Of a stretch of 64,000 bases of DNA, positions 958-43,805 are shown one piece after another; position 1 is the stretch's first letter, and the number at the start of each line of letters is the position of its first letter. A program made the position numbers and the translations under genes. A model generated the notes under the pieces. It was not told the DNA's origin. It saw only the letters and a program-made list of their open reading frames with translations, and did not search any database. The DNA is from Glycomyces xiaoerkulensis. Its GTDB lineage: Bacteria; Actinomycetota; Actinomycetes; Mycobacteriales; Micromonosporaceae. The stretch is from NCBI RefSeq assembly GCF_002798405.1, contig NZ_PGGV01000037.1:1-64000 (forward strand), given 5' to 3'.

Positions 958-970
958 GGAGCGGCTCACC

Positions 971-29007: not shown

Positions 29008-29034
29008 TTGACACAGCGCCGCCGCGGGTACGGT
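29008..29034 (+). promoter_or_regulatory. Leaderless promoter of the Cys-rich conserved gene
   Basis: TTGACA (29008-29013) and TACGGT (29029-29034) precede the ATG at 29041. The -10-like hexamer ends 6 nt before the start codon, so transcription would begin at or next to the ATG. The 15-bp spacing is short, which weakens the -35 assignment. Confidence 0.45.
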
Positions 29035-29040
29035 GGACGG

Positions 29041-29850
29041 ATGACCGACGAGGTGGAGCCGAACTTCGACCGGGAGTGGGTCGAGTTCTACGACCCCGAC
29101 GACCCGGGGACGCTGGTCCGAGCGGATCTGACCTGGCTGCTGTCGCGGTGGGGGTGCATCTTCGGCAAGAGTCCGGAGGTCGGCGGCTGTCCCGGGATCG
29201 ACCACAATCGCCCGGCCGACGGGTGCTGCCTGCACGGGGCGTTCTACACCGACTCCGACGACATCAAGCGGGTGCGGGCCGCATCCCGCAAGCTGACGCC
29301 CGAGACCTGGCAGCTCCACCGGCCCTGGCGGGAGACGATCGTCGACGACACCCTGGAGAACGACGACGGCGAGGAGGAGCCGGCGAAGAAGACCGCCGTG
29401 GTCGACGGCGCCTGCGTCTTCCACAACCGGGACGGCTTCGCCACCGGCAGCGGCTGCGCGCTGCACCAGCAGGCGCTGCGCGACGGGGTCCACCCGATGG
29501 AGTACAAGCCCGAGGTGTGCTGGCAGTTGCCGGTCAAGCGGGACTTCAAGTCCGAGCAGCGCGCCGACGGCACCGCCGTGGAGGTCACGCTCATCACCGA
29601 GTTCGACCGGGCCTCGTGGGGGCCCGGCGGCCACGACTTCGACTGGTGGTGCACCGGCTCGCCGCTGGCGCACACCGCCGCCGACCCCGTCTACGTCTCC
29701 TACGAGTCCGAGCTGACCGAGCTGCTGGGCAAGGCCGCCTACGACAGGCTGGCCGAGCTGTGCGCGGTGCGGGCCGAGCGCGGCCAGGTCGCGCCGCACC
29801 CGGCCACGGAGGCGAACCGCGAGAGCCTCCCCGACCCCAAGCGGCGCTGA
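29041..29850 (+). CDS. Conserved cysteine-rich protein (putative metal-binding)
   Basis: A 269-residue soluble protein with regularly placed cysteines: WGCIFGK, VGGCPG, DGCCLHGAF, GACVFH, GSGCALH, PEVCWQL, WWCTGS. The pattern suggests a bound zinc or iron-sulfur centre, as in DUF3109/YkgJ-like proteins. A comparable conserved protein (Rv0495c-like) lies near this gene group in mycobacteria, which supports vertical descent. It begins with ATG at 29041 with a leaderless promoter. Function unknown. Confidence 0.7.
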   Translation: MTDEVEPNFDREWVEFYDPDDPGTLVRADLTWLLSRWGCIFGKSPEVGGCPGIDHNRPADGCCLHGAFYTDSDDIKRVRAASRKLTPETWQLHRPWRETIVDDTLENDDGEEEPAKKTAVVDGACVFHNRDGFATGSGCALHQQALRDGVHPMEYKPEVCWQLPVKRDFKSEQRADGTAVEVTLITEFDRASWGPGGHDFDWWCTGSPLAHTAADPVYVSYESELTELLGKAAYDRLAELCAVRAERGQVAPHPATEANRESLPDPKRR

Positions 29851-30136: not shown

Positions 30137-31636
30137 TTGTCGGACCGTGGGCAGGGACAGCGGCCGGGTGTCACCGCAGTGGTCCTCGCGGGAGGCACTG
30201 GTCAACGCGTCGGCCTGAGCATCCCCAAGCAGCTCATCAAGATCGCAGGCAAGCCCGTGATCCAGCACACGCTCGAAGCCTTTCAGTTGGCCGACGAGAT
30301 CGACGACATCCTCGTGCTCATGGCCCCCGGATACATCGACGACGTCCGGGCCGTGGTCGAGAAGGCCCGTCTCACCAAGGTCGTCGACGTTATCCCCGGC
30401 GGCGGCACCCGGTCGGACAGCACCAAGGCGGCCGTCGCCTACCTCGAGGACCGCCCGGGCTCCAGCCATGACCGGCGCCTGATCTTCCACGACGCGGTGC
30501 GACCGCTCATCTCCGGCCGCGTCATCTCCGAGACCGTGGCCGCCCTCGAGCGCTACGACGCCGTCGACGTGGCCATTCCCTCCTCAGATACCGTCATCGT
30601 CACGCGTACGCACGGCAAGGACGGTGAGTTCATCACCGACGTCCCCGACCGGGCACGCCTGCGGCGCGGACAGACGCCCCAGGCGTTCAAACTCGCCACG
30701 ATCCGCGCCGCCTACCGGGAAGCGGACCGAGACCCCAACTTCAAGGCCACCGACGACTGCTCGGTCGTGCTGAAGTACCTGCCCAGCGTTCCGGTCCACG
30801 TCGTCACCGGCGACGAGTGGAACCTCAAGGTGACCCAGCCGGTCGACCTCTACATCGCGGACAAGCTGTTCCAATTGGCGTCGACCGCGGTGCCGCCGTC
30901 CACTGACGAGGACTACCGGACTCGTCTGGCCGGCAAGACCCTGGTGGTCTTCGGCGGTTCGTACGGCATCGGCGGGGATCTGGCCGAACTGGCCGAATCC
31001 TACGGCGCCGACGTGTACCGCTTCGCCCGCTCGACCACCGGCACGCACGTCGAGAACCCCGATGACATCGCCGCGGCCCTGAAGAAGGCCCACCAGGAGA
31101 CCGGCCGAATCGACTACGTGGTCAATACCGCCGGTGTTCTGCAGGTCGGACGACTGAATGAGACCGGCACCGAGGACCTCGAGAAGACCTTTCAGGTCAA
31201 CTACCTCGCCCCCGTGCAGATCGCACGCGAAGCCTTCCCGTACCTCGCCGAGACCCAGGGGCAATTGCTTTACTACACCTCCTCCAGCTATACGCGCGGG
31301 CGAGCCAATTACAGTCTCTACTCCTCCACCAAGGCCGCCTTGGTCAACCTGACGCAGGCGCTGTCCGACGAATGGAGCGACGACGGCATCCAGGTGAACT
31401 GCATCAATCCCGAACGCACCGCTACCCCGATGCGCACCAACGCATTCGGCCGGGAGGACCCTGAGACCCTTCTGGACTCCGCCGAAGTCGCCAGGACCTC
31501 GCTGGACGTGCTCCTGTCAAGCCTCAACGGTGCGGTGATCGATGTGCGGCGCGAAGACCCGACGGCCACGGCCGATCGATCCGACAACTTCGAACAGGCG
31601 ATCGCCCGGATCCTCGACACCGGATTCGAGGGCTGA
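30137..31636 (+). CDS. Bifunctional cytidylyltransferase-SDR reductase (CDP-ribitol synthase type)
   Basis: A 499-residue fusion. Residues 1-240 form an IspD/TarI-type cytidylyltransferase (AVVLAGGTGQRVGLSIPKQL, GGGTRSDSTKAAV, HDAVRPL, TPQAFKL). Residues about 258-499 form a short-chain dehydrogenase with a GGSYGIGG nucleotide loop, VNTAGV and the YSSTK catalytic Tyr-Lys pair. This order matches Bcs1/Acs1 proteins, which reduce ribulose-5-phosphate to ribitol-5-phosphate and activate it to CDP-ribitol for capsule or teichoic acid synthesis. The start is TTG with AGGAGG 7 nt upstream. First gene of the wall-polymer locus, followed by two polyol-phosphate polymerase-type genes. Confidence 0.88.
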   Translation: MSDRGQGQRPGVTAVVLAGGTGQRVGLSIPKQLIKIAGKPVIQHTLEAFQLADEIDDILVLMAPGYIDDVRAVVEKARLTKVVDVIPGGGTRSDSTKAAVAYLEDRPGSSHDRRLIFHDAVRPLISGRVISETVAALERYDAVDVAIPSSDTVIVTRTHGKDGEFITDVPDRARLRRGQTPQAFKLATIRAAYREADRDPNFKATDDCSVVLKYLPSVPVHVVTGDEWNLKVTQPVDLYIADKLFQLASTAVPPSTDEDYRTRLAGKTLVVFGGSYGIGGDLAELAESYGADVYRFARSTTGTHVENPDDIAAALKKAHQETGRIDYVVNTAGVLQVGRLNETGTEDLEKTFQVNYLAPVQIAREAFPYLAETQGQLLYYTSSSYTRGRANYSLYSSTKAALVNLTQALSDEWSDDGIQVNCINPERTATPMRTNAFGREDPETLLDSAEVARTSLDVLLSSLNGAVIDVRREDPTATADRSDNFEQAIARILDTGFEG

Positions 31637-31689
31637 AGACGGCCCGTTACTCCAACCGATCCCGCCTCCGGAAAGCGAGACTCGAGAAC

Positions 31690-33696
31690 ATGTCCGATGC
31701 GACGCGCACCAGCCGTTTCCTCAGCGGCATCGGCACCTGGGACATGGCGCTCACGCTGCTGCTCATCACGTGTTACCCGGTGATGCTGGTCGCTGCGATA
31801 ATCCCGTCGGCCCCGGTCTTCATCGGAGCAGTCGCCGTAAGCCTGGTCGTCGACCTGTCCCTGCTGCGAGGGCAGAGCAGCGTCGCCGGCCACCTGCGGC
31901 AATTCCGGTTCGGTGTCTCGAACCGAGTGGCGGTCCGTCAGTTGCTGGTGATCAGCCTCCTGGCGAGACTCGCTGCCACCGGAGAAATCGGTTTCGGGCC
32001 AGTCGTCCTCGCGGCGGTCGCGAGCGTCGCGTTCTACGGCCTCCAAGCCGTGCACGGCGGTCTAGTCGCGGTCGTGCGCAAGACCCGACGACTACCGATC
32101 TCGACGAAGAACATCGACCTGTCAGGAATGAAGATCAGCGACGCCCCGCCCGCCGTGCTACTCAACCGGGCCGGCGACAAAATCCTCCATATGGACCTGC
32201 CGCTCATCGCAGGGCTGCTCGCGACCGCGGCCACCGGGAGGGCCTCCTTCGGCGTCGCCGGTACTGTGGCGACCATGATCCTGGCCGTCGGCTATGTCCT
32301 GGTCACGAGCCTGTGGCTACGGCCATCCAAATGGGTGCCCAAGGAGGAGCGGACACTGGACTGGTTCGACAGGTGGCTTCGTGAATACGCGCCGACGACC
32401 ATTCTCTACTTCTCCGGTTCCAAGGAGTCGACCTACCAGCTCAACATGTGGCTGGAGCCTTTGGAGCGTCTCGACGGCGAGCGGCCCCTGGTGATCATGC
32501 GGGAGCAGCACACCTTTCCGGGTCTCCAGCACACCAGCCTGCCGGTAGTCTGTGTGCCCAGCGCCGTCCATCTGATGAATATGGACCTGTCCACCGTCCG
32601 AGTCGCCATGTATCCAGCGCACGTCGGCAAGAATCTGCACCTGCTGCGGGTGCCGACCATGAAGCACGTTTTCCTCGGGCACGGCGACAGCGACAAGGTG
32701 GCCAGCGTCAATCCGTTCGGCAAGGCATACGACCAGCTCTGGACCGCGGGCGAAGCGGGCCGGGAACGATGGGAACGCGCCGACGTCGGCGTCCGCGACG
32801 ACGCCATCGTGTCGGTCGGACGTCCACAGCTTCACTCCATCCGGACCGCGGCTCCGGACGCGGAGATTCCCACCATCCTTTACGCGCCCACCTGGGAGGG
32901 CTGGACCGACGAACCGGGCAATACGAGCCTCGTCGAGGTCGGCGAGGCGATCGTAGCCGCACTCCTCCGGACCGATCCGCCGATTCGACTGGTCTACAAA
33001 CCCCACCCGTTCACCGGTATCCGCTCGAAGGCCGCCAGGACCGCCAACGACCGCATCGTCGAGATGATCGAGGCAGCCAACCGCCGGCGGGGCCACGAGT
33101 CCGGTGCCGACACGGACTCGACCGGAGTGAGGCGGGCCCAGGCCGCCCAGTCGCAGGCAAGCCGCGTCGACGCCGCCTTCTCACGCGACGACATGACTTC
33201 GACGGCCGAAGTCGAAGCCAACCGGCGGGCCGCCGCGAAACGCGACGCGGACTTCTGGTCCTCCCGTCCGACCGGCGGCCACGTGGTGATCACCGGCGCC
33301 GAACCGACTGTCTACGACTGCTTCAACCAGGCGCACGCGCTGATCGCGGACGTCTCCAGCGTCGTAACGGACTTCATCGCCAGCGGAAAGCCCTACGCCA
33401 TCGCCGACTCGGCCGGGCTCGGCGAGGCGGTCTTCAAGCGCGACAACACAGCCGCCCGGGCCGCGTTCATCCTCGACCGGGACGGCGGAGGTCTCGAATC
33501 GCTGCTAGCGGCAGTGCGCGATCACGAAGCCGACCCGCTGCGCGAGGACCGCGACGCGCTCAAACGGTATCTCCTGGGCCCCGACGTGCCGCCCTCACAG
33601 GAACGGTTCGCCGCGGCCGTCCGCGACCTCGCCGAGCAGGCAGAGGCCCGCAACCGAAAACAACAACTCGCGGCCGAGGAGTCCGTGTCCAGATGA
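31690..33696 (+). CDS. CDP-glycerol/ribitol glycerophosphotransferase family protein 1 (TagF/TarL-like)
   Basis: A 668-residue enzyme. Its N-terminal region has about 4-5 membrane helices (about 20-215). The C-terminal GT-B catalytic domain has the key motifs FLGHGDSDKV (about 328, catalytic His), YKPHPFTG, and the nucleotide/acidic motif ALIADVSSVVTDFIASGKP. A Gln/Arg/Ala-rich insertion (about 470-525) separates the last two. It should add polyol-phosphate units from a CDP donor to a lipid-linked acceptor at the inner face of the membrane. It overlaps the next paralogue by four bases (ATGA), implying coupled expression. Confidence 0.85.
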   Translation: MSDATRTSRFLSGIGTWDMALTLLLITCYPVMLVAAIIPSAPVFIGAVAVSLVVDLSLLRGQSSVAGHLRQFRFGVSNRVAVRQLLVISLLARLAATGEIGFGPVVLAAVASVAFYGLQAVHGGLVAVVRKTRRLPISTKNIDLSGMKISDAPPAVLLNRAGDKILHMDLPLIAGLLATAATGRASFGVAGTVATMILAVGYVLVTSLWLRPSKWVPKEERTLDWFDRWLREYAPTTILYFSGSKESTYQLNMWLEPLERLDGERPLVIMREQHTFPGLQHTSLPVVCVPSAVHLMNMDLSTVRVAMYPAHVGKNLHLLRVPTMKHVFLGHGDSDKVASVNPFGKAYDQLWTAGEAGRERWERADVGVRDDAIVSVGRPQLHSIRTAAPDAEIPTILYAPTWEGWTDEPGNTSLVEVGEAIVAALLRTDPPIRLVYKPHPFTGIRSKAARTANDRIVEMIEAANRRRGHESGADTDSTGVRRAQAAQSQASRVDAAFSRDDMTSTAEVEANRRAAAKRDADFWSSRPTGGHVVITGAEPTVYDCFNQAHALIADVSSVVTDFIASGKPYAIADSAGLGEAVFKRDNTAARAAFILDRDGGGLESLLAAVRDHEADPLREDRDALKRYLLGPDVPPSQERFAAAVRDLAEQAEARNRKQQLAAEESVSR

Positions 33697-35375
33697 AACG
33701 CCTGAGTCGGCTGCTCACCTCGAATCCGATCTCCACGGCCGCTCCGGTGCCGATCGGCGCGGCAGCACTCGCCGCGTTCATCGTCGGCGCGCCAGGCTGG
33801 CTCGGCCTGGTCTGCGCCGCCGCAGCCCTTGCGCTCATACTGGGACGACGCCGTGCGCAGATTCAGCCCGAGGACCAGATCGGCCGCATCCTCGCCGTAG
33901 GCGCCCTCAGTGTCGGCGCGTCCGGGCAGGTCCCCGACGCGAGCTGGGCGACCGCGATCGGCGGTGGCGGGCTGGCACTCATCATCGGTGTCGAACGACT
34001 CCTTACTGCCGCCGTCGCCACCGGTCACCTCGAATCTGCCAACCTCTCGGTACGCCGCGGACGCGCCGGTCGGAGCTTCAGCCCGGCCCCGGTGCGCCGT
34101 GCCGTCACCGCCACCACCGTGGTCTTCGGCGCGGCCGCGACCGCCGCGATCCTGACCTCCGTACAGGCACCGATGTGGATCTCGGCCGCATGCACGGCAG
34201 CCCTCACGGTCGCACTCGCCGCCGGGACGGCGGCGGCCTGGCGAGAGCGGCGCAGTTCAGCCCACCCCGGCGACGGCGCCGTCCGGGAGGCGTTGGCCAC
34301 GCTCGGGCCGCGGTTCATCGTCCACTTCTCCGGGCCGTCGAACTCCGCCTATCAACTGCGCATGTGGCTGCCACACCTCGATCGTGTCGGAGAGCCCTAC
34401 CTCATCGTCTGCCGCGAACGGGAGCACCTGGACGACCTCCGCGACCACACCGATAGGCCGATCGTGCTGGCGCCCACCATCGCCGCGTTGGAGCAGATGC
34501 TCGTCGACAGCGTCAGGGCCGTGTACTACGTCAACAACGCCGCCCTGAACACGCAACTGCTGCGCTTCGGAGATCTGACCCACGTGCAGCTGTTCCACGG
34601 CGAGTCCGACAAGGCCTCCAGTTTCAATCGGGTGACCGCGATCTACGACCAGATCTTCGTCGCCGGGCAGGCTGCTGTCGACCGGTACCGCGCGCGCGGC
34701 GTCGACATCCCCGACCACAAGTTCCGCATCGTCGGTCGACCCCAACTCGCTTCCGTCGAGGTCGGCGCCCGCCAAACCGACGAGTCGGAAACGGTCACCA
34801 TGCTCTACGCACCCACCTGGGCCGGGCTCACCGGTGAGTTCGACTACTCCTCGCTGGTCATCGGCAAGCACATCGTCGCCGAGGCGCTGCGCAGGGAGGT
34901 GACATTGTGGCTGCGTCCGCACCCCTACACCCGCCGCAACGCGGCTTCGGCGCGCCATTTGGCCGAGGTCGAGGAGCTGCTTCGCTCAGACCGACAGCGC
35001 ACCGGCCGCAAGCATCAGTGGGGTCCGGCCATCGACGACGTCGACCTGGCCGACTGCATCAACGCCGCCGACATAGCCGTCACCGACGTCAGCGGCGCCG
35101 CAGTCGATTGGCTGTACTCGAACAGGCCGTTCGCGATCTGCGACATGGGAGGTCTTGGTGAGGAAGCCTTCGCCGAGCAGTTCTGGATCGCCCGCGGGGC
35201 CTACCACATCAGCGTGGAAGCCACCGGACTCGACACCGTATTCGACGAGCTGCTGAAGACCGACAGCCGCGCCGGGGAGCGGGAGGCGACCCGCCGGTAC
35301 TTCCTCGGGGAAGGCGACGCCGCCGACGCCCTCGACCGGTTCGTGAGAGCCGTCCGTGAATCGCTCGAAGCCTGA
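33693..35375 (+). CDS. CDP-glycerol/ribitol glycerophosphotransferase family protein 2
   Basis: A 560-residue paralogue with N-terminal membrane helices (about 15-180) and a catalytic domain bearing VQLFHGESDKASSF (about 300), LWLRPHPYTRR and VTDVSGAAVDWLYSNRPF. It overlaps the stop of the preceding paralogue (ATGA). It is closer in motif layout to the minus-strand copy at 40793 than to its neighbour. It is convergent with the pyruvyltransferase genes, whose stop lies only 3 nt away. Two polymerases in tandem suggest one primer-type (TagB/TarF) and one polymerase-type (TagF/TarL) activity; which is which cannot be read from sequence. Confidence 0.85.
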   Translation: MKRLSRLLTSNPISTAAPVPIGAAALAAFIVGAPGWLGLVCAAAALALILGRRRAQIQPEDQIGRILAVGALSVGASGQVPDASWATAIGGGGLALIIGVERLLTAAVATGHLESANLSVRRGRAGRSFSPAPVRRAVTATTVVFGAAATAAILTSVQAPMWISAACTAALTVALAAGTAAAWRERRSSAHPGDGAVREALATLGPRFIVHFSGPSNSAYQLRMWLPHLDRVGEPYLIVCREREHLDDLRDHTDRPIVLAPTIAALEQMLVDSVRAVYYVNNAALNTQLLRFGDLTHVQLFHGESDKASSFNRVTAIYDQIFVAGQAAVDRYRARGVDIPDHKFRIVGRPQLASVEVGARQTDESETVTMLYAPTWAGLTGEFDYSSLVIGKHIVAEALRREVTLWLRPHPYTRRNAASARHLAEVEELLRSDRQRTGRKHQWGPAIDDVDLADCINAADIAVTDVSGAAVDWLYSNRPFAICDMGGLGEEAFAEQFWIARGAYHISVEATGLDTVFDELLKTDSRAGEREATRRYFLGEGDAADALDRFVRAVRESLEA

Positions 35376-35378
35376 CCC

Positions 35379-36758
35379 TCAGCGCAGGCGGCGCTTGATC
35401 CGCTTCATACGGCGGGCGACCTGCTGCCGCAAGGAGGCGTCGGCCCTTCTGTTTCCCTGACGTTTGACGGTCGCCTCGAGTTCGGCGACCCGCTTCTCAA
35501 GCTTCTCGGTGGCGCTGACCCGTTCGTTGAGCCACGCGATCCGCTCGGCGATCCCCTCGTCTACGGTGTCGGCCCAGGACTCGACGAGACGCGGGAAGTT
35601 GGTCTCGCGCTTGCGACGCTCGAACCCGGCGCCGCCGTCGCCGTGGTCGAAGCAGTTGTCCAACCCGTTCGCGGTCAGGAAGGCGATGTAGCGCTCGTAG
35701 CGCTCGTAGTAACCCGCGTTGAATCCGCTGAAGTCGAGCTCCTCGTAGAGGTCGGCCGCGGTCGCGCCGGCTTCGAGCTTGCTGAGGTCGCGGTGCGGGA
35801 TACCAAGGTATCGCGCCAGTTCCAAGGTGCGCGAGTCGTGCGCCATTACGTAGGCCGGGGTCCCCGCCAGGATCGCGGCCATATTGCCGTGGATACGGGT
35901 GCCGATCGCGAAGTCCCGTTCGGCGAGGTCGTCCATCCACGGCCGCGGATCGATAGGGAATACCGCACGTGTGCCGCGCAGAATCGGGTCGGCCAGGTTG
36001 CGGGCCGTGCCGGACGTGGCCAAGTCCGACTGGCGAGAAGTGTCGCCCCAGTACAGCATCTCCAGATCGACGTCGTTCTGGGGGAAGTAGGTGAGGTCTG
36101 AGTACTCGGACAGCATCGACTCGACAAGCTCTTGGAACGCGCCGAGACCTCGCGAAGCCGGCGAGTAGGACAGGGCGACGGATGAATCGGCGGTGAGCTT
36201 GTCGACCTTCTTCTCGATGCGAAAGCCCTTTCCGTGGGCGAACATCGCCGGGCAGCCGATGACCTCCACATGGTCTTTGAAGCCGAGGGAGGCGAGATAA
36301 TCGGCGGTCAGCTCTCCGCGCACGCCCATGGTCGCAGAGCGGTCGAGCACGGCGCGGACGAACTCGATGACCTCTTCCTCGACCGCTTTGAGCCGCTCGA
36401 GGTCGCCGGCGAGCCCGGTCTGGGCGCCGACGCCAGGAACGACGACCGGAATGCGCAGCCGCTTGATCAACTTGGTCATCTGCGAGAGCGGTCCCTTGAA
36501 GGACGGGCGGAAGGCATTGGCGAGCGGGACGACGAAGGCGTCGTACTCCTCGTTGATGCGTTCGGCGTCGCGCGGATCACCGTTGAGCTGGGGGCCGTTG
36601 ATGTGCACCTCGACTTCGGGGGTGGTCAGGTGCTTGAAGACCGCGTCGCTGAACAGAAGGTTGCCGACGTTGGTGGCAATGGTTCTGCGCTTGATCGTAC
36701 CCAGCGCCGAAACGGGCTCGAAGGGGTGCTTCGCCGCCCGAATCAGGATCCGTTTCAT
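35379..36758 (-). CDS. Polysaccharide pyruvyl transferase family protein A
   Basis: A 459-residue protein of the polysaccharide pyruvyltransferase (CsaB/WcaK) fold: NVGNLLFSDAVFKHL, PVVVPGVGAQTGL, ATMGVRGELTADYLASLG, DFAIGTRIHGNMAAILAGTP, MAHDSRTLELARYLG. The RIHG motif and the following conserved His/Asp are the usual active-site region. A basic coiled-coil tail (about 395-459) follows. It should transfer pyruvate from phosphoenolpyruvate to a sugar of the polymer as a ketal. The paralogue directly upstream overlaps by four bases. Confidence 0.85.
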   Translation of the reverse strand: MKRILIRAAKHPFEPVSALGTIKRRTIATNVGNLLFSDAVFKHLTTPEVEVHINGPQLNGDPRDAERINEEYDAFVVPLANAFRPSFKGPLSQMTKLIKRLRIPVVVPGVGAQTGLAGDLERLKAVEEEVIEFVRAVLDRSATMGVRGELTADYLASLGFKDHVEVIGCPAMFAHGKGFRIEKKVDKLTADSSVALSYSPASRGLGAFQELVESMLSEYSDLTYFPQNDVDLEMLYWGDTSRQSDLATSGTARNLADPILRGTRAVFPIDPRPWMDDLAERDFAIGTRIHGNMAAILAGTPAYVMAHDSRTLELARYLGIPHRDLSKLEAGATAADLYEELDFSGFNAGYYERYERYIAFLTANGLDNCFDHGDGGAGFERRKRETNFPRLVESWADTVDEGIAERIAWLNERVSATEKLEKRVAELEATVKRQGNRRADASLRQQVARRMKRIKRRLR

Positions 36759-38209
36759 GAGCGCTCCTTGTTCGGTCGTTGACGTCGGCGCAAGATTCGG
36801 CGTACGCGCTTGGCGAGCCGCTGCGGCCAGGCTCGCTCGAGTCGCGCGACGCGCTTGGTCATGTCCTCGAGACGGTCCTCGACGTCAAGGAGTCGCCGAG
36901 TGTTGTCGGCCTGGGCAATCTCCATGGCGTTGAGGCGTCCCGAGAGTTTACCTGTGCGTTGTCCTGCGTTGTCGACGCGTTCCTTGAGCCAGGCTATGCG
37001 GGTAGCGGTCTCGGGGTCGGCCGATTCGGCCCATGGGCGCACCGGAGGTGGGAAGACCGTGCGCGCCATCTCGGCCTCGAAGGCGGCGCCCCCGTCACCG
37101 TGCGCGAAGCAGTTGTCAAGGCCGTTCTTCGACAGGAACGCAGAGTATGCTTCGAACCGCTTGTCATAGCCTCGGTTGAAATCACCGGTGTCGACCTGTT
37201 CGTAGAGGTCGGCCACGGTGGTACCACCCTCGACTTCGCTCAGTCTGCGGTGGGGGAGGCCCAGGTACCGGGCGAGCTCGAGCGTGCGGGAGTCGTGGGC
37301 GAGCAGCATCGCAGGAACCCCGGCGAGGAGGGCCGCGACATTGCCGTGGAGTCGGGTGCCGAAGGCGAAGTCGTGTTCGGCCAGCTCGCGGATCCAGGTT
37401 CGCGGGTCGAGTGGGAAGACGGTCCTGCCGGGTCGCATCAGCGGGTGTGTCAGGTGGACCGGGGCTTCGGCCGAAGTGCCGGTGAGCTGCGAGGTGTCGC
37501 CCCAGTACAGCAGCGACAGATCCTTGGACTCCTGCGGGAAGTAGGTGACCCGGCTATGTTCGCGAAGTGCCGACTCGACGAGCGCCGCGGCAGTCCCTTC
37601 GTCGTCGGCCCACGGGGTGTAGGAGAGCGCGACTGAAGTCTCTGGATCGAGCGTGCCGGTCGGTCCGGGAATGCGGAAGCCGGGGCCGTGTGTGTACATC
37701 GACGGGCAGCCGATGACCTCGACGTCGTTAAAGCCGAGTCGGCGAAGGTAGTCGGCGGTGAACTCGCCGCGTACACCGATCGAGGCCGAACGGTCGAGGA
37801 CCGCGGTTATGAAGCGGCGCACCTGCTCGTTGAGACCACTCACGGCGTCGAGGTCGTAGTGGACGTCGGTCTGGGCCCCGACTCCGACGACCACGACGGG
37901 GATGTCGAGCCGCTCCACCAAGCGCGTGAGCGTGTCGAGATGCCGCATGAAACTCGGCCTGAAGGCGTTCGCCAGCGGGATTGCGAACGCGTCATAGCGC
38001 TCGTTGATCGCCTCGGCATCCGCGGGGTCGCCGTTGAGCCTGGGTCCGTTCACCTCGACCTCGGTGTCGGCCGTCTTGAGGTGCTTGAAGACCGCGTTGC
38101 TGAAGATCAGGTTGCCGACGTTGGTGGCGATGGTGTTCTGCTTCAGAGTCGCCGCCGCGGAGGCGGCGTCGAAGGGATGTTTAGCGGCCCTGATCAGGAT
38201 CTTCTTCAC
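36755..38209 (-). CDS. Polysaccharide pyruvyl transferase family protein B
   Basis: A 484-residue paralogue of the adjacent gene, with an equivalent N-terminus (KKILIRAAKHPFDAASAAAT against KRILIRAAKHPFEPVSALGT) and the same motifs: NVGNLIFSNAVFKHL, PVVVVGVGAQTDV, ASIGVRGEFTADYLRRLG, DFAFGTRLHGNVAALLAGVP and LAHDSRTLELARYLG. A C-terminal coiled coil is also present. I use the GTG at 38209, which aligns with the paralogue's start; an ATG at 38233 is possible. Its TGA overlaps the ATG of copy A. A tandem duplication that has diverged suggests two different acceptor sugars. Confidence 0.83.
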   Translation of the reverse strand: MKKILIRAAKHPFDAASAAATLKQNTIATNVGNLIFSNAVFKHLKTADTEVEVNGPRLNGDPADAEAINERYDAFAIPLANAFRPSFMRHLDTLTRLVERLDIPVVVVGVGAQTDVHYDLDAVSGLNEQVRRFITAVLDRSASIGVRGEFTADYLRRLGFNDVEVIGCPSMYTHGPGFRIPGPTGTLDPETSVALSYTPWADDEGTAAALVESALREHSRVTYFPQESKDLSLLYWGDTSQLTGTSAEAPVHLTHPLMRPGRTVFPLDPRTWIRELAEHDFAFGTRLHGNVAALLAGVPAMLLAHDSRTLELARYLGLPHRRLSEVEGGTTVADLYEQVDTGDFNRGYDKRFEAYSAFLSKNGLDNCFAHGDGGAAFEAEMARTVFPPPVRPWAESADPETATRIAWLKERVDNAGQRTGKLSGRLNAMEIAQADNTRRLLDVEDRLEDMTKRVARLERAWPQRLAKRVRRILRRRQRPNKERS

Positions 38210-38384
38210 ATCGTGGAGCCTAACAGGGACCATAGTCGGTCCCCAGGGCCGTGGCCGCTGCTCAGTGCCACGATCGCGGCCTCAACGACGCCATCGCAAA
38301 CGCTCGAGCAACTCGAGTACCGGACGACGACCCGGTCATGTCGTAGTCACGGGCGGCCCCCATCGTGGTCGGATTTGCCGCTCC

Positions 38385-38650
38385 CTGAGTCCGCAATGTC
38401 GGCAATCACCAACGTCCATCCATAGTAGATTCTGTCCGAGACAGTACCACTATGTCGAAAACGGCGGCGTCTGAGACGTTGATGCAGTCGGTGAGCGTCG
38501 CTTCAGTCCCGTCACACGGAACCCCAGCGACCGACTTCGGCGGCGATCATTGCTCGGATCACAGCGCCCGCTTCCTGATAGGCATTGATAGAGACCGCTC
38601 GCGAATGAGCCCGGAAGATCACGCGCACATCGGCCCCTACTCCCAGGTCC
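38385..38650 (-). pseudogene. Decayed remnant of a CDP-polyol phosphotransferase gene
   Basis: Read on the minus strand this segment gives ADVRVIFRAHSRAVSINAYQ, then after a frame break DGTEATLTDCINVSDAAVFD, then after another break SGTVSDRIYYGWTLVIAD. These align in order with RRGVRVIFRAHPYTATSKAY, DAESTLTDCINAADAAVSDI and SGTASDWLYCGRPLAMTD of the intact gene at 40793-42484. There are at least one in-frame stop and two frameshifts, and both ends are missing. The rest of the 38210-38656 gap shows nothing else. Confidence 0.85.
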
Positions 38651-38656
38651 AAGGAA

Positions 38657-39862
38657 CTACGCTTTCGAGGCGAATCTCCCGAGAAAGCGCTTGACGAGCC
38701 GTTCAAAGCGCCGCTCGACTTTGTCTTCGACGGGTGGAGGGCTCTGCTTTGGAATCGTCGGCCGCGGCCGCCGTCGCGGACGGTCGGTCGCTTCGACCAG
38801 CGACTCGAACATGAGCTTCGCCACCGCCTCGGAGCTGACCATGGGCCGTTCCGGCCGCTCAGTCTGTGGGCGACTCGGCCGCCGGGAAAGCAAGGCGGGG
38901 TCGCCGATGACACGGAGTCCCGATTCGGTGAGCCCGGCGGCGATCTCCTCGCCGACAGCGGCCGCTTCGTCCAACGCCCAGTCCGGGGTCACGATTCGAG
39001 GCTCGTCCGCGCCCGGCCGGTGCGCCCGCTGAAATCTCGGGATGATTTTGTGGCGCAGAATATTGGTGTCGACCTTTGTGCGTCCCGCGATCTTTGGATC
39101 CTTCGCGATGATGTACAACTGCCGAACCGCCTCGATCTCACCCCAGGTCAACGATCGGTTGCCGGAGTCTTGACTCACTTCGAGCACCCCTTCAGGGAGT
39201 CCCAACAGCGATTCGAAGTCCTTCGGCAGCCCCTCGGGCTGGGAGTTGTCCACGACTAGAACAGATACTCGATCGGCACCCACCACCTCACTCCAGCGGG
39301 ACGCCAGCCGATCGTACCGGTGACGGCGCCAGAACGACGGCGTCGGCTTGTCGTAAGGTATTTCTCGGAGCATGCCGGTAAGCCAGTCGTCGTATGAGTT
39401 CCGGACGCCATTCTGGACGTACTGCTGCCACTGGGAAGCCAACAGTCCCGGCAGGGAACGGCATGTGATCAGTACATGGACTCGCTCGGCGCCGCCGAGG
39501 TCGTCGACGAGCCTCCGCGCGAACTCGTCGTCGGCATCCCCGAAGAGTTCGCCGCTGAGGACCGAGATCCTGTCGGAGGCCGCACATGTGGCCGCCGAGA
39601 TCTCCTGCCACTTGGAGAGAAGTCGCTCCGGGTCTCCCGCCTGCGGGCGTCTTCCGGCGGCCACGCCGAACACGTTCATCGGATGCCGGGTTCTCGCGGG
39701 CAGGAACACTCCGTGCCCGGCCAGTTCGCCGCGGGCGTTATGGAGCGCGTGCTGAATCGCGGTGGTGCCGGTCTTGGTGGGGCCTATGTGCAGAAGCACC
39801 GCCCCCGGCTCGAGCCCGAGCAGACCGACACCCTCGGACTTGCCAGAATCACCGTTGTTCAT
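38657..39862 (-). CDS. Sulfotransferase-like P-loop protein of the wall-polymer locus
   Basis: A 401-residue protein with a PAPS-type P-loop near the N-terminus (VLLHIGPTKTGTTAIQHALH, about residues 22-41) and a later RVHVLITCRSLPGLLASQWQ segment that matches the 3'-phosphate-binding motif (Arg-Ser). These define the sulfotransferase superfamily (stealth/Stf0-like bacterial type). The C-terminal 80 residues are Arg/Pro-rich and basic. Context points to sulfation or a related group transfer on the wall glycopolymer. Other P-loop group transfers cannot be excluded. Confidence 0.75.
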   Translation of the reverse strand: MNNGDSGKSEGVGLLGLEPGAVLLHIGPTKTGTTAIQHALHNARGELAGHGVFLPARTRHPMNVFGVAAGRRPQAGDPERLLSKWQEISAATCAASDRISVLSGELFGDADDEFARRLVDDLGGAERVHVLITCRSLPGLLASQWQQYVQNGVRNSYDDWLTGMLREIPYDKPTPSFWRRHRYDRLASRWSEVVGADRVSVLVVDNSQPEGLPKDFESLLGLPEGVLEVSQDSGNRSLTWGEIEAVRQLYIIAKDPKIAGRTKVDTNILRHKIIPRFQRAHRPGADEPRIVTPDWALDEAAAVGEEIAAGLTESGLRVIGDPALLSRRPSRPQTERPERPMVSSEAVAKLMFESLVEATDRPRRRPRPTIPKQSPPPVEDKVERRFERLVKRFLGRFASKA

Positions 39863-39935
39863 CCCAGCATGCTAGCGCCTGCGAACGCGTCGACCGCCGA
39901 GAGCAAACTTGCGAGCAACAATCGCGTCCGAGTCC

Positions 39936-40631
39936 TCATTTGAACCGCCGGTTCGCGTCTGCCAGGTCATAGTCGAAATCGACTTCGACGACGTTGTGCG
40001 AGGATATGTCGACCGCCTCGAAGCGCAGGCCGTCCTTGTCGATGGCGGCCTCGATGCCCGCCTCGAAGTAGTCCTGTTCGCCGACCCCTTCGAGCCGGTT
40101 GGCCAGCGGCGTGCGGTCGAGGGACGAGACGTAGTTGATCCCCACCGCCTCTCCGAGGGCTCCGTCGGCGATCTCCTTGGAGAGGCGGCTGATGTAGCCG
40201 TCCGCGGCGAGGGTGTACTTGACCTCTTCATCGGAGACCCGCGCGGTATTGACCGAGATGAATGACTTGTCCATCGCGATGTGGGGCAGCAGCGCATCGA
40301 GCACCTGCGGATCGAAGACCACGTCCCCGTTGAGCCAGAGGAGGCCTCCCGGTCCCGTTATCCTCAGGGCCTTCAGGAGGCTCTTCGAGGTGTTGGTGTC
40401 CCCGTACGCCTGGTTGTAGATGAAGCCGACGTCGGGCACCTCCTCCATGATCATCTCCTTCTTGTACCCGACCACCAGGTGGATGGAATGAAGGTTGAAG
40501 CGCGAGGTAAGCAGGCGCAGCGACCGCCCCAGGATCGTCTCACCGGTGTCGAGCGGGGTGAGCGGCTTCGGGTGCGGTTTTCCAAGACGCGATCCCACTC
40601 CCGCGGCCAGAATGACGATGTTCGTGGTCAC
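39936..40631 (-). CDS. Nucleotidyltransferase (LicC-like/sugar-1-phosphate type)
   Basis: A 231-residue NTP-transferase with the N-terminal signature VILAAGVGSRLGKPHPKPLT and the catalytic WLNGDVVFD. The body resembles LicC phosphocholine cytidylyltransferases (LVVGYKKEM, IYNQAYGDTNTSKSLLKAL, AVGINYVSS and the C-terminal VEVDFDYDLADANRR, like LicC's IDSxxDY segment). It probably activates a small phosphorylated substituent (phosphocholine-like or another phospho-alcohol) or a sugar phosphate for addition to the polymer. The substrate cannot be told from sequence. Confidence 0.75.
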   Translation of the reverse strand: MTTNIVILAAGVGSRLGKPHPKPLTPLDTGETILGRSLRLLTSRFNLHSIHLVVGYKKEMIMEEVPDVGFIYNQAYGDTNTSKSLLKALRITGPGGLLWLNGDVVFDPQVLDALLPHIAMDKSFISVNTARVSDEEVKYTLAADGYISRLSKEIADGALGEAVGINYVSSLDRTPLANRLEGVGEQDYFEAGIEAAIDKDGLRFEAVDISSHNVVEVDFDYDLADANRRFK

Positions 40632-40792
40632 GTTTACACCTCAAGTGGTTGATCGGCGAATATCCTCTGAGTTTACCCAGTTGAACACGAGGCGACCAAG
40701 ATAACGACAGGTCCACCGAGCGGCCACGACCTCCTGATCCACATTGGCTATATATGGCCAGGCGCGGGGCTCTGGCCCTCGCCTCTCGGAGG

Positions 40793-42484
40793 TCAGCCCG
40801 ACGCGAACGCCGAGTCGGCGGCCTCTTCCAGGTAGGTGGCCCTGACCTCGTCCCGGAAGACGTCGATGAGGTCCTCAGGGGCGATGTCGCCGAGATAATA
40901 CTCGCGAACTTCGGCCCGGACCGCCTGGAGGGGGTCGTCGACGAGGATCCGGTCGAGGACCTGCTCAAGGTTGCCCGCGTCGGGTTCGAGGAGATAGGCG
41001 GCCCGCGCCAGCGGGAACTGGTCGACGTAGCGGTCCCGGAAGCCGCGCGGATCGGTCATCGCGAGCGGCCGCCCGCAGTAGAGCCAGTCGGAGGCGGTGC
41101 CGCTGATGTCGGATACGGCGGCGTCGGCGGCGTTGATGCAGTCGGTGAGCGTCGACTCGGCGTCGGCCCTCCGGCCCCACCAGTGGTCGCGCCCGGTTCG
41201 TGCGGCATCCTCGGCGAGCAGTTCGCGGATGCGGTCGGCCAGTTCGAGGTAGGCCTTGCTGGTGGCCGTGTACGGGTGGGCCCTGAAGATGACTCGCACG
41301 CCGCGGCGTAGCAGGGCCTCGACGATCGTTCGGCCTTCGGGCAGGGACGAATAGTCGGTGTCGCTGTGCAAGCCCGCCCAGGTGGGCGTGTACAAGACCG
41401 TAGGCGGCTCGTCGGCGTCGCGTTCGCGGGGCCCGACGCTGATGCCGTGGAGTTGGGGGCGGCCGATGAGACGGAATTTGTACTCGGGGAGGTCGACGCC
41501 GTTGCGGTGGTAGCGGTCGACGCCGGCCCGTCCGGCGACGAAGACCCGGTCGTACATGAGCGAGACGGGACTGCGGCTGATGGCCTTGTCGGAGTCGCCG
41601 TGCATGAGCTGGACGTGCATGTACTCGCTCAGCTTGATCATCTGGACATTCTTGACCGCGTGGTTGGAGTAGAAGCAGGCGCCGACGCTCTCAGGCAAGA
41701 GGCGGTCGAGCACCGACTGGTCGGAAACGAGCACGATCGGGGCCTCGGTCGCCGAGGCGACACGCCTGAGCAGGTACCGGTCGCGGACGATCACCAGGTA
41801 GGGGTCGCCGACGAGGTCGAAGTAGGGCAGCCACATGCGAATCTGGTATTCGGAGCGGGGCGCACCTGCGAAATGGACGACGAAGCGGGGCGCCAGGTCG
41901 GCGACGGCCTCGGCGACGGCGGTGTCGACCGGGTGCGACTCGGCACGGCGTCGGATCGCGTTGGACAGCACGACCGACGCGGTCCAGCCAAGGACGGCGA
42001 CCGTCGCGACCAGGGCCACGACGTCGATCCCGGCGGCCCAGGGCCAAGTGCCGACGACCGCGGCGAACACGAATCCGAGGCAGAGGCCGTTGACCGCGAA
42101 AGCAATGGACGCCGGAGCGGACAGTTGCTCCCGCCTCGTCCGGTGCACATCGAGGTGTCGCGTGGTGAGGTGGTAGATATCGAGTGCACGCTTGACGATG
42201 TCGGTGTAGGTGAAGTACAGGACGAGCATGCCGCCGGCGGCCAGCAGCGGCCAGCGGTCGAGTCCGGAGTCGCGCCAGGCGGCGATGAGGACCGCGAGGG
42301 CGCCGAGAATGCGGGCGATTCGCCTGGTAGCGATTGCGCGTCGATCATGCCAGGCGACGACGACGAACACGGTTGCGGCCGCCAGGAAGGCAGGCAGGGG
42401 GGATGACACGGTCACCGCTGCTGCGACGGCGGCCAGTGCGATCAGGTTGAGCCTGGAGGTCCAGGACATCAGAACACTCTTCAT
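40793..42484 (-). CDS. CDP-glycerol/ribitol glycerophosphotransferase family protein 3
   Basis: A 563-residue enzyme. N-terminal membrane helices (about 10-175) precede a GT-B catalytic domain with VQLMHGDSDKAISRSP (about 295), VIFRAHPYTATSKAY and AVSDISGTASDWLYCGRPLA. It is the intact relative of the remnant at 38385-38650, which implies the locus once held a second copy on this strand. The ATG at 42484 has AAGGAG about 12 nt upstream, slightly far; an internal ATG at 42469 is possible. Confidence 0.85.
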   Translation of the reverse strand: MKSVLMSWTSRLNLIALAAVAAAVTVSSPLPAFLAAATVFVVVAWHDRRAIATRRIARILGALAVLIAAWRDSGLDRWPLLAAGGMLVLYFTYTDIVKRALDIYHLTTRHLDVHRTRREQLSAPASIAFAVNGLCLGFVFAAVVGTWPWAAGIDVVALVATVAVLGWTASVVLSNAIRRRAESHPVDTAVAEAVADLAPRFVVHFAGAPRSEYQIRMWLPYFDLVGDPYLVIVRDRYLLRRVASATEAPIVLVSDQSVLDRLLPESVGACFYSNHAVKNVQMIKLSEYMHVQLMHGDSDKAISRSPVSLMYDRVFVAGRAGVDRYHRNGVDLPEYKFRLIGRPQLHGISVGPRERDADEPPTVLYTPTWAGLHSDTDYSSLPEGRTIVEALLRRGVRVIFRAHPYTATSKAYLELADRIRELLAEDAARTGRDHWWGRRADAESTLTDCINAADAAVSDISGTASDWLYCGRPLAMTDPRGFRDRYVDQFPLARAAYLLEPDAGNLEQVLDRILVDDPLQAVRAEVREYYLGDIAPEDLIDVFRDEVRATYLEEAADSAFASG

Positions 42485-42602
42485 GTTCGGCTGCGACTCC
42501 TTATCGAGATCGGTCGGACCGGGGCGGGCCGAACGGTTCGCATTCGGAGGGCTTTCGCAACTACCGGATTGGTCTGTTCATTCCTGATTTTTCTTCACGA
42601 TA

Positions 42603-43805
42603 TCAACGAAATGCCCGGAGTTCACCTGAAGCGGAAACGTCTGCATCTGCTGCGAGCAGGCACTCGAACAGGCGCTCGTGGCGGCCCACCATCGCGCTCG
42701 GTTCGAAGTGCCGGGCCGTGTACCGGCCGGCCTCGGCGAGCTTGTGGCGCAGCTCCGGGTCGCCCATGAGCCGGGCCAGCGCGTCGGCGAGCGCGTTGAG
42801 GTTCTTGGGTTTGACCAGCAGGCCGTTGACCTCGTTGTCGACGATCTCGCGCGGGCCGTGCTTGACGCCGGTGCACACGACCGGCAGTCCGGCGGCCATG
42901 GCTTCGACGATGACCAGGCCGAACGGTTCGAACCGGGAGGGGACTGCGGCGATGGAGGCCCGGCGCCATTCGGCTTCCAGCGGCGTGACCGCGCCCATGA
43001 GTTCGACTCGGGAGTCCAGGCCGTGTTCGGCGATGATCCGCTGGAGCTTCCGGCGGTCGCGCCCGCGCCCGTAGATGCGGACCTTCCATTCGGGGAAGCG
43101 GTCGGCGATCCGGCCGAATGCCTCGATGAGGCGGTCGAAGCCCTTCATGCCGGTGAGGCGCCCGGCGGTCATGATGACCGGTTCGGTCAGGTCGGACGGC
43201 GGGTTCGGGTTGGGCGGGATGGAGTTGGGGATGCATTCGGCTTTGCCGGCGTGCTCGGGGAGGGCGCGGCGGTAGGCCTCGGCGTCGGCCTCGGTGGTGG
43301 TGACGATCGAATCGAGCCGTCCGTAGTTCCCGACGATGCGGTCTCGGACGGCGGGCCGGTAGTGGTCGAGGAAGAGGTGCTCTTGGGCGACCTTGGCGGT
43401 GTCGGACCTGCCCCAGCGGGCGAGGTAGAGGTTGAGGCTGACGTGGGTGCTGACCAGGACGTCGGTGTCGACGTGCCGGAGGTAGCCCTTGACGCGCCGG
43501 TCGAGCAGCCGCGAGGACTCGTCCATGTTGTTCACGTTGTCGGCGTCCAGGTACGAGGGGAGCCGCCGGTTGATCCGGTCGGCCGGCGAGGGCCACTCGC
43601 CGCCGTTCTCGGGCCGGCGCCGGTCCCAGAGGGTGACGATCTCCAGCCGGGGGTCGATTGCGAAGTCGGGTCGCTCCTTGGTGCGGACGCAGGAGGCGAT
43701 CGTGACCTGATGTCCGCGGTCGGCCAGGGCTTCCGCCGTGTTCAGCGTCGTCCTGATGGTGCCGCCGATGCCCCAGATGTTGCGAACGAGAAATGTGATG
43801 CGCAT
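42603..43805 (-). CDS. GT4-family glycosyltransferase
   Basis: A 400-residue retaining GT-B glycosyltransferase. The N-terminal acceptor domain begins MRITFLVRNIWGIGGTIRTT (the GG loop). The C-terminal donor domain has IMTAGRLTGMKGFDRLIEAF, a G-R-G-R-D-R segment, and the EX7E motif EPFGLVIVE. Near the end of the wall-polymer gene set, it probably adds the linkage or substituent sugar to the polymer. Donor unknown. The 234-base gap upstream (43806-44039) has no gene. Confidence 0.87.
   Translation of the reverse strand: MRITFLVRNIWGIGGTIRTTLNTAEALADRGHQVTIASCVRTKERPDFAIDPRLEIVTLWDRRRPENGGEWPSPADRINRRLPSYLDADNVNNMDESSRLLDRRVKGYLRHVDTDVLVSTHVSLNLYLARWGRSDTAKVAQEHLFLDHYRPAVRDRIVGNYGRLDSIVTTTEADAEAYRRALPEHAGKAECIPNSIPPNPNPPSDLTEPVIMTAGRLTGMKGFDRLIEAFGRIADRFPEWKVRIYGRGRDRRKLQRIIAEHGLDSRVELMGAVTPLEAEWRRASIAAVPSRFEPFGLVIVEAMAAGLPVVCTGVKHGPREIVDNEVNGLLVKPKNLNALADALARLMGDPELRHKLAEAGRYTARHFEPSAMVGRHERLFECLLAADADVSASGELRAFR

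What the first reader, a model, noticed from the sequence alone, without database searches (positions are those of the whole stretch)
30137..43805. Candidate pyruvylated and sulfated teichoic-type polymer locus
A CDP-ribitol-type synthase, three CDP-polyol phosphotransferases, two pyruvyltransferases, a sulfotransferase-like protein, a LicC-like activator and a GT4 enzyme are packed together. This suggests a poly(polyol-phosphate) wall polymer with pyruvate ketals and possibly sulfate or a phospho-alcohol substituent. No flippase or ABC exporter for the polymer is in the segment.
Basis: partly seen in the sequence, partly recalled or inferred. Interest (0 to 1): 0.7.

Follow-up and report, generated by a model that had tools for sequence, protein, structure and literature searches.

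The report
Modular ribitol wall-polymer gene locus
This stretch of an actinobacterial chromosome looks like an interchangeable set of genes for building a charged cell-wall polymer of ribitol phosphate and decorating it with pyruvate and perhaps sulfate, a known kind of system with an unusual combination of decorations and one unexplained activating enzyme.

Summary
The locus is modular. Module A (fused TarI-type cytidylyltransferase plus SDR, PT1, PT2): the TarI domain passes the ribitol-5-phosphate model and fails IspD. Such fusions lie near the same transferase family in 27 of 41 pyruvyltransferase places of a Streptomyces-like genus; two checked lie by L21/L27, as does the S. griseus WTA locus, whose polymer is mainly 1,5-poly(ribitol phosphate) (PMC13274773). 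Module B: LicC-like enzyme, PT3, GT4; LicC in 17 of 20 genus-mate regions. Module C: two pyruvyltransferases and a sulfotransferase-like protein, in 0 of 20. Other mates fill the site with TarS-like glycosyltransferases or a phosphonate-donor cassette. Best reading: a pyruvylated, perhaps sulfated poly(ribitol phosphate) with a second, LicC-made donor. Unresolved: LicC's substrate, sulfation, export, anchoring (no TagO found). Pyruvylated poly(ribitol phosphate) is known chemistry (PMC6801904), and a tarIJL-pyruvyltransferase neighbourhood is in print (PMC9045211). New variant of a known kind.

The parts
30137..31636 (+). Fused TarI-type cytidylyltransferase and SDR reductase (TarIJ/Bcs1-like), predicted CDP-ribitol synthase; TTG start as listed
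   Evidence: NF001183 D-ribitol-5-phosphate cytidylyltransferase 182.6 bits (cut-off 166), TIGR00453 IspD 165.0 (cut-off 181.3), SDR Pfam hits; PDB best hits 4jis, 6xhp are ribitol-5-P cytidylyltransferases
31690..33696 (+). PT1: TagF/TarL-type (PF04464) transferase with hydrophobic N-terminal part; predicted ribitol-phosphate polymerase
   Evidence: PF04464 23.8 bits; HGDSDK, YAPTW, HPFT, DVSSVVTD and hydrophobic segments; groups with transferases next to fused TarIJ, 100/100 and 99/96
33693..35375 (+). PT2: second PF04464 transferase, overlapping PT1 by 4 bases
   Evidence: PF04464 35.7 bits; groups with the second transferase of three genus mates, 100/100
35379..36758 (-). PPT2: polysaccharide pyruvyltransferase
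   Evidence: PF04230 60.9 bits; 57% identical to PPT1
36755..38233 (-). PPT1: polysaccharide pyruvyltransferase, overlapping PPT2 by 4 bases
   Evidence: PF04230 79.4 bits
38657..39862 (-). ST: sulfotransferase-like protein
   Evidence: KTGTT at 30 and R-x7-S at 135; 44 and 47% identical in two loci with fused TarIJ; no Pfam match
39936..40631 (-). LicC-like cytidylyltransferase, predicted maker of a second activated phospho-alcohol
   Evidence: NTP_transf_3 57.0 bits; profile best PDB hit 1jyk, LicC; LAAGVGSR and PKPLTP; found in 17 of 20 mate regions
40793..42484 (-). PT3: PF04464-type transferase next to LicC
   Evidence: 20.1 bits, below the Pfam cut-off; groups with LicC-adjacent transferases, 99/96
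42603..43805 (-). GT4 glycosyltransferase
   Evidence: Glycos_transf_1 141.4 bits; homologue in 14 of 20 mate regions
29008..29850 (+). Conserved left flank of the variable island (DUF3109 match below the cut-off)
   Evidence: 76.6-84.1% identical in the 17 mate regions where found
44040..46814 (-). Conserved right flank: DNA topoisomerase (TopA), followed by the H+-pyrophosphatase gene 46947-49265
   Evidence: PF01131 and PF03030; TopA 84.0-89.2% in 14 mate regions, HppA 78.6-89.8% in 12

Best explanation
The locus encodes synthesis and decoration of a ribitol-phosphate teichoic acid. (A) The fused TarI-SDR enzyme would reduce ribulose-5-phosphate and activate the product to CDP-ribitol; PT1, perhaps with PT2, would polymerise ribitol phosphate at the inner membrane face. 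(B) LicC would activate a second phospho-alcohol (or phosphonate) of unknown identity, which PT3 (or the related PT2) transfers to the chain; GT4 would add a sugar in priming, linkage or side-chain position. (C) PPT1 and PPT2 would ketalise the polymer with pyruvate from PEP, most simply at the 2,4-diol of ribitol, and ST would sulfate it from PAPS. Export and LCP ligation would be done by genes elsewhere. Shown here: families, co-location, phylogenetic modules, motifs. Inferred: every substrate and product, the order of steps, location and anchoring.
For: TarI domain over the ribitol model and under the IspD model. Both domains of the fused enzyme in 27 and the transferase family in 33 of 41 pyruvyltransferase places in the Streptomyces-like genus; at the Obg/ProB-flanked site 27 and 29 of 30. 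Same-family genome G024: fused enzyme, transferase and pyruvyltransferase within 9.4 kb. L21 and L27 beside the two loci checked, as at the S. griseus WTA locus with TarIJ and TagF, whose WTA is mainly poly(ribitol phosphate) (PMC13274773 sections 8, 36, 45). PT family aligned to canonical TagF-type proteins, probability 96.6, E 6.6e-10, motifs in register. Tree: PT1 with TarIJ-adjacent and PT3 with LicC-adjacent transferases. Pyruvate 2,4-ketal on poly(ribitol phosphate) reported for Nocardiopsis metallicus (PMC6801904 passage). One APS kinase and four LCP genes in the genome.
Against: No chemistry. Eight of 41 pyruvyltransferase places have neither TarIJ domain nor transferase in the stretch fetched. 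No TagO-type PF00953 gene found besides the one between MurD and MurF. No TagGH assigned. The SDR is not the TarJ family of Bacillota (recalled). ST has no Pfam or PDB match, also as a profile. Both structure models were too weak to use (pLDDT 38.2 and 44.8). LicC is absent from all 41 Streptomyces-like places, mate G016 keeps LicC with no PT3-type gene in the stretch fetched, and in three mates a PT2-related transferase sits by a phosphonate-type cytidylyltransferase instead, so the donor of PT2 cannot be read from its family.
Confidence: 0.62

Rival explanations
1. The pyruvate and sulfate go on a sugar side chain or on a separate polysaccharide, not on ribitol; the cassette only shares the site with the teichoic acid genes.
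For: PF04230 enzymes characterised so far act on sugars (recalled); Nocardiopsis halotolerans carries pyruvate on GalNAc (PMC6801904 passage); GT4 is present; 8 of 41 Streptomyces-like pyruvyltransferase places lack TarIJ and transferase in the stretch.
Against: At the Obg/ProB site 27 of 30 places hold both TarIJ domains and 29 of 30 the transferase; pyruvyltransferase and transferase lie on one strand within 500 bases in 11 of 41; in T. halophilus tarIJL is followed by a putative pyruvyltransferase (PMC9045211 passage).
Confidence: 0.35
2. The product is lipid-anchored or capsular, not linked to peptidoglycan.
For: The only PF00953 gene found lies between MurD and MurF; hydrophobic N-terminal parts on all three transferases; a fused cytidylyltransferase-SDR also occurs in a Parabacteroides polysaccharide locus beside LicD.
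Against: Four LCP genes and two TagA-like genes; S. griseus WTA with a TarIJ/TagF locus was released from wall sacculi (PMC13274773 section 8).
Confidence: 0.25
3. The fused enzyme makes a CDP-polyol other than CDP-ribitol, so the backbone is a different polyol phosphate.
For: SDR specificity cannot be read from sequence; the two lone IspD-like genes of mates that I scanned fit the ribitol model less well (148.0 and 143.9 against 166).
Against: Window enzyme 182.6 against 166; a Streptomyces-like fusion 167.1 against 166; best PDB hits are ribitol-5-P enzymes.
Confidence: 0.12
4. ST is not a sulfotransferase, or acts on something else; the polymer is not sulfated.
For: No Pfam match; Sulfotransfer_4 only in 2 of 6 family members, best E 0.0075; no PDB match.
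Against: KTGTT or KTGTS in 22 of 25 family ORFs and R-x7-S in 21 of 25, one of these at an odd spacing; ST within 500 bases on the same strand as the fused enzyme in 10 of 41 places.
Confidence: 0.3

Closest known systems
Streptomyces WTA locus at L21/L27 (S. griseus SGR_4956 TarIJ, SGR_4957 TagF; PMC13274773, sections read)
   Same: TarIJ next to a TagF-type transferase with a variable set of decorating genes; loci of the unnamed Streptomyces-like genus also hold pyruvyltransferases and, in 15 of 41 places, ST
   Different: Different chromosomal site; the window has a LicC-PT3-GT4 module, two pyruvyltransferases and no TarS-like glycosyltransferase in the locus; the main text held has no word beginning 'pyruv' or 'sulfotransferase'
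Pyruvylated poly(ribitol phosphate) of Nocardiopsis metallicus (chemistry; seen in PMC6801904 passages)
   Same: The predicted backbone and ketal
   Different: No genes and no sulfate given in the passages seen
tarIJL plus putative pyruvyltransferase of Tetragenococcus halophilus (PMC9045211 passages)
   Same: Ribitol WTA genes followed by a pyruvyltransferase
   Different: Separate TarI and TarJ; no ST or LicC mentioned in the passages seen
LicC / PntC cytidylyltransferases (PMC6697681 passages)
   Same: Same nucleotidyltransferase type (PF12804); 1jyk is the best profile hit
   Different: Here next to a TagF-type transferase, as also in Solidesulfovibrio pDCAR1 and genome G038; no PEP mutase gene among the nine; substrate unknown

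Membership tests
Ribitol wall teichoic acid (tar) pathway | Ribitol-5-phosphate cytidylyltransferase (TarI) | tested here: met
   NF001183 182.6 bits, cut-off 166
Ribitol wall teichoic acid (tar) pathway | Ribulose-5-phosphate reductase | tested here: inconclusive
   Fused SDR, not the TarJ dehydrogenase family (recalled); substrate not testable
Ribitol wall teichoic acid (tar) pathway | TagF/TarL-type polymerase | tested here: met
   PF04464 over cut-off in two of three; profile comparison E 6.6e-10
Ribitol wall teichoic acid (tar) pathway | TagO-type initiating enzyme in the genome | tested here: not met
   One PF00953 match, lying between MurD and MurF, so taken as MraY by position; the 200-residue stretch itself gave no NCBIfam match at 1e-8; genome 97.65% complete
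Ribitol wall teichoic acid (tar) pathway | TagA-type enzyme in the genome | tested here: met
   Two PF03808 matches on other contigs
Ribitol wall teichoic acid (tar) pathway | TagGH exporter | tested here: inconclusive
   15 ABC2_membrane matches, none in the locus, none assigned as TagG
Ribitol wall teichoic acid (tar) pathway | LCP ligase in the genome | tested here: met
   Four PF03816 matches
Ribitol wall teichoic acid (tar) pathway | Polymer with ribitol phosphate in the wall | not testable with these tools
   Needs chemistry
Polysaccharide pyruvyltransferase PF04230 | Family score over cut-off | tested here: met
   60.9 and 79.4 bits, cut-off 25.3
CsaB (ManNAc pyruvylation) | TIGR03609 equivalog score | tested here: not met
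   23.0 and 33.3 bits, cut-off 213.1
PAPS sulfotransferases | 5'-phosphosulfate motif and R-x7-S motif (recalled) | tested here: met
   KTGTT at 30, RSLPGLLAS at 135; R-x7-S also arises in 32% of shuffled 80-residue slices
PAPS sulfotransferases | Recognised sulfotransferase family | tested here: not met
   No Pfam match for ST
PAPS sulfotransferases | Sulfotransferase fold | tested here: inconclusive
   Model pLDDT 38.2
LicC phosphocholine cytidylyltransferase | Close relation to LicC | tested here: inconclusive
   1jyk E 2.6e-4 over profile positions 4-85 only; GlmU nearly as close, E 4.8e-4
LicC phosphocholine cytidylyltransferase | Choline uptake and kinase genes (LicB, LicA) and LicD | not tested
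   None among the nine genes; genome not searched for them
PntC phosphonate cytidylyltransferase | PEP mutase gene nearby | tested here: not met
   None among the nine genes; the rest of the genome was not searched for it

The most novel reading that the evidence does not exclude
The genus builds its wall polymer from interchangeable donor-transferase pairs, each TagF-type transferase coming with its own cytidylyltransferase: fused TarI-SDR for ribitol, a LicC-type enzyme for an undescribed alcohol or phosphonate, and in three mates a Fom1-like cytidylyltransferase-PEP mutase for a phosphonate. In this species the decoration part makes the polymer both pyruvylated and sulfated, a pair that my paper searches did not find reported for a teichoic acid.
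Probability: 0.3. Interest if true: 0.65.

Novelty: new variant of a known kind. Interest (0 to 1): 0.45.

Why it matters
It names candidate genes for pyruvate ketals on poly(ribitol phosphate), and candidates for teichoic acid sulfation and for a second activated donor. The locus varies between species at a fixed site, down to what looks like a phosphonate donor in three mates. Variable wall glycopolymers of Streptomyces serve as receptors for umbrella toxins (PMC13274773), and one viral contig carries a relative of these pyruvyltransferases, so the variable part is a testable place to look for toxin or phage receptor variation.

Tried and rejected
Tried without result: single-sequence model of ST (pLDDT 38.2) and a three-sequence model of the transferase domain (pLDDT 44.8), both too weak for a fold search, so none was run. 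PDB profile searches: nothing for ST, only TagF-like Cps3D at E 0.16 and unrelated chains for the transferases. Profile comparison of ST with a Sulfotransfer_3 protein of the same genome: only the KTGTT stretch, probability 0.4. Kleinschnitz 2011, Sigle 2016 and a recalled paper on phosphonoglycans of Glycomyces and Stackebrandtia (Yu and others 2014) are not held.

Considered and rejected: the fused enzyme as MEP-pathway IspD (TIGR00453 165.0 against 181.3); pyruvyltransferases as CsaB; TagD as donor source for PT3 (no match in the own genome at E 0.001 and none over the cut-off in 41 genomes; 18 of 41 have weaker matches, of which those in G003, G017 and G021 proved to be the cytidylyltransferase part of a PEP mutase fusion); the pyruvyltransferases as a genus trait (in 21 same-genus genomes only one marginal partial match, G001, E 1.4e-4).

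Limits: in the tree 59 of 84 transferase ORFs were used, the dropped 25 being Streptomyces-like; PT2 and a few others entered as over-long ORFs, and two LicC labels (L086, L095) rest on such ORFs. Of 21 same-genus genomes 20 were fetched at the locus (G020 not); for three of them (L078, L091, L093) the stretch shows no TopA side, so absence of LicC is not shown. The regions were chosen around PF04464 hits, so PT in 20 of 20 is by construction. Gene calls in relatives are my own script's. Paper searches; only open-licence PMC papers.
Full report
What is there. The left group (30137-35375) is on the + strand, the rest (35379-43805) on the - strand, the two meeting tail to tail with three bases between. 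Family scans give: a TarI/IspD-type cytidylyltransferase fused to an SDR; three PF04464 transferases (PT1 and PT2 over the Pfam cut-off, PT3 just below it); two PF04230 pyruvyltransferases (PPT1, PPT2, 57% identical); a protein without a family match (ST); a small NTP transferase (LicC-like); a GT4 glycosyltransferase. Third-position G+C is 0.77-0.90 in these genes and 0.91-0.97 in the six neighbours measured.

Backbone. The TarI domain passes NCBI's D-ribitol-5-phosphate cytidylyltransferase model (182.6 bits, cut-off 166) and fails IspD (165.0, cut-off 181.3); the best PDB matches are ribitol-5-phosphate cytidylyltransferases. The transferases are a divergent branch of the TagF family with a hydrophobic N-terminal part: as a ten-sequence profile they align to four canonical TagF-type proteins with probability 96.6 and E 6.6e-10, with the HG..K, YAPTW, HP and D.S...D stretches in register. 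That these are catalytic motifs of TagF is recalled.

A fixed site with changing content. I fetched the locus in 20 of 21 same-genus genomes. By tblastn these regions hold LicC in 17 of 20, an IspD-type domain in 18, GT4 in 14, TarS-like glycosyltransferase matches somewhere in 13, an SDR-domain match in 5, pyruvyltransferase in 0 and ST in 0. The fused enzyme is in three mates (G002, G015, G016). The flanks are a DUF3109-like and a xylose-isomerase-like gene on one side and TopA and HppA on the other, 76.6-89.8% identical where found. Mate G016 has the same left frame (fused enzyme, PT1, PT2) and the same LicC before TopA, but three glycosyltransferases with TarS-linker hits (one of the three below the Pfam cut-off) where the window has PPT2-PPT1-ST, and a fourth to the left. 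The middle of the locus therefore behaves as a swappable part.

Donor and transferase pairs. In a maximum-likelihood tree of 59 of the 84 transferase ORFs found, PT1 groups with transferases next to the fused enzyme (100/100 within the genus, then 99/96 with Streptomyces-like ones), PT3 with transferases next to LicC (99/96), and PT2 with the second transferase of the three mates that have the fused enzyme (100/100); PT2 and PT3 belong to one larger group (99/98). LicC has a transferase on the same strand within 200 bases, or overlapping in my over-long ORFs, in 14 of the 20 regions. LicC beside a PF04464 gene is also seen in a Solidesulfovibrio plasmid and in G038, there followed by a glycerophosphodiester phosphodiesterase. 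A Nonomuraea record has a transferase, a TarI-SDR match and a weak LicC-like match (30.5%) within 6.2 kb. I infer that LicC feeds the PT3 type. Against a strict rule: G016 has LicC but no PT3-type gene in the stretch.

A phosphonate version in three mates. In G003, G017 and G021 a transferase of the PT2/PT3 group lies 188-226 bases from a fused cytidylyltransferase-PEP mutase (TIGR02320 409.9-419.5 bits, cut-off 319.55), the domain order of Fom1, which makes CMP-hydroxyethylphosphonate (PMC6697681 passage); a TPP enzyme (G017, G021), an iron alcohol dehydrogenase (G003, G021) and LicD-family genes (all three) are close by. So TagF-type transferases at this site appear to come with different activating enzymes. 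Phosphonoglycans of Glycomyces and Stackebrandtia are recalled from a paper that is not held. This raises the possibility that the window's LicC, whose family includes phosphonate-activating PntC (PMC6697681 passages), also acts on a phosphonate; no PEP mutase is among the nine genes, and the rest of the genome was not searched for one. The substrate of LicC is open: the profile's best PDB match is pneumococcal LicC, over 82 positions only, with GlmU nearly as close. No glycerol-3-phosphate cytidylyltransferase was found in the own genome.

The same parts elsewhere. Pyruvyltransferases of this type were found in 7 of 396 genomes of the phylum at E 1e-30 and in 37 of 199 genomes of one large-genome genus (41 places). 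I fetched 39 of those 41 and already held the other two. Of the 41 places, 33 have a transferase of this family, 27 both domains of the fused enzyme, 34 a TarS-like glycosyltransferase, 15 ST, none LicC; 8 have neither transferase nor TarIJ in the stretch. Of the 30 next to Obg or ProB, 29 have the transferase, 27 TarIJ, 11 ST. Two of these loci, inspected, lie by ribosomal proteins L21 and L27; a third slice was too short to tell. This is the setting described for S. griseus TarIJ (SGR_4956) and TagF (SGR_4957), and its WTA was found by NMR to be mainly poly(ribitol phosphate), 1,5-linked (PMC13274773, sections 8, 36 and 45). That the genus is Streptomyces is my inference. G024, of the window's own family, has the fused enzyme, a transferase and a pyruvyltransferase within 9.4 kb.

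Pyruvate. A 1,5-poly(ribitol phosphate) with a 2,4-pyruvate ketal on each ribitol is reported for Nocardiopsis metallicus (PMC6801904, passage), and the authors of PMC9045211 linked a pyruvyltransferase behind tarIJL to that structure (passage). The gene-to-structure idea is therefore not new; the actinobacterial loci make it broader.

Sulfate. ST has no family match. It carries KTGTT at 30 and R-x7-S at 135, as do most of its relatives: 22 of 25 family ORFs have the first motif and 21 the second, one of these at an odd spacing; R-x7-S alone is weak, since it arises in 32% of shuffled slices. That these are PAPS-site motifs is recalled. One APS kinase gene is present. My paper searches listed no sulfated teichoic acid; a 2026 study calls bacterial sulfated polysaccharides exclusive to cyanobacteria and proposes one in Actinoplanes (PMC13390465, passages), while a listing shows a sulfated capsule of Cobetia marina (PMC11766843, listing and start of abstract).

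Export and anchoring. Four LCP genes and two TagA-like genes were found. The only PF00953 match lies between MurD and MurF and is taken as MraY by that position, so the classical TagO start was not found in this 97.65% complete genome. Of 15 ABC2_membrane matches none is in the locus; the three whose surroundings I read look to me like drug exporters, the rest are unassigned. Wall linkage is thus inferred, and a lipid-anchored or capsular product remains possible.

Verdict. It is a modular teichoic acid locus: a ribitol-phosphate module shared with Streptomyces-like genomes, a LicC-PT3 module common in the genus, and pyruvyltransferase and sulfotransferase-like genes found in this species alone among the genus regions and, for the pyruvyltransferase, among the genus genomes searched. 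The open and more novel parts are the LicC product, sulfation and the exchange of donor-transferase pairs.

Noticed in passing
L079 10217-15692, L093 3819-11428, L096 8769-16867 (genus mates G003, G017, G021): At the same site a PT2-group transferase lies next to a Fom1-like fused cytidylyltransferase-PEP mutase, with TPP enzyme, iron alcohol dehydrogenase and LicD-family genes nearby (not each in all three): a likely phosphonate-bearing surface polymer.
   Followed up: partly
L205 (IMG/VR contig, 9.1 of 43.9 kb held), 3962-6331: A pyruvyltransferase 37% identical to PPT1 and a Caps_synth (PF05704) gene lie between minor-tail-type genes and an endolysin-like gene on a viral contig: possibly a phage that alters its host's surface polymer.
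   Followed up: partly
L204 (IMG/VR contig, 8.7 of 202.7 kb held), 88-4717: A LicC relative (50% identical) lies one gene away from a Cas3-type nuclease-helicase gene on a contig classed as viral.
   Followed up: partly
Cobetia phage Carin-5, PV155638.1, 108258-108965: A LicC-like gene (38.5%) annotated CTP:phosphoglutamine cytidylyltransferase in a phage.
   Followed up: no
Own genome G000:C22, about 207.5-220 kb (L105 9505-18303, L195 1204-2088): Downstream of the ATP synthase genes: a second ST homologue (40%), two AT3-SGNH acyltransferases, a Sulfotransfer_3 protein, a TagA-like gene and a further protein over the Sulfotransfer_3 cut-off: perhaps another sulfated surface polymer locus.
   Followed up: partly
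window 9554-10138 (+): ORF beginning with an STGRCGS stretch that recalls sulfotransferases; no Pfam match up to E 0.001.
   Followed up: partly
L099 and L084 (G008): One genus mate has two separate PF04464 loci, one at the conserved site and one with separate IspD-like and SDR matches elsewhere.
   Followed up: no
L080 14355-15128 and L088 8329-9171 (genus mates): Lone IspD-like genes beside the LicC module score higher with IspD than with the ribitol model (185.2 and 172.6 bits against 148.0 and 143.9), so their role in the polymer is unclear.
   Followed up: partly
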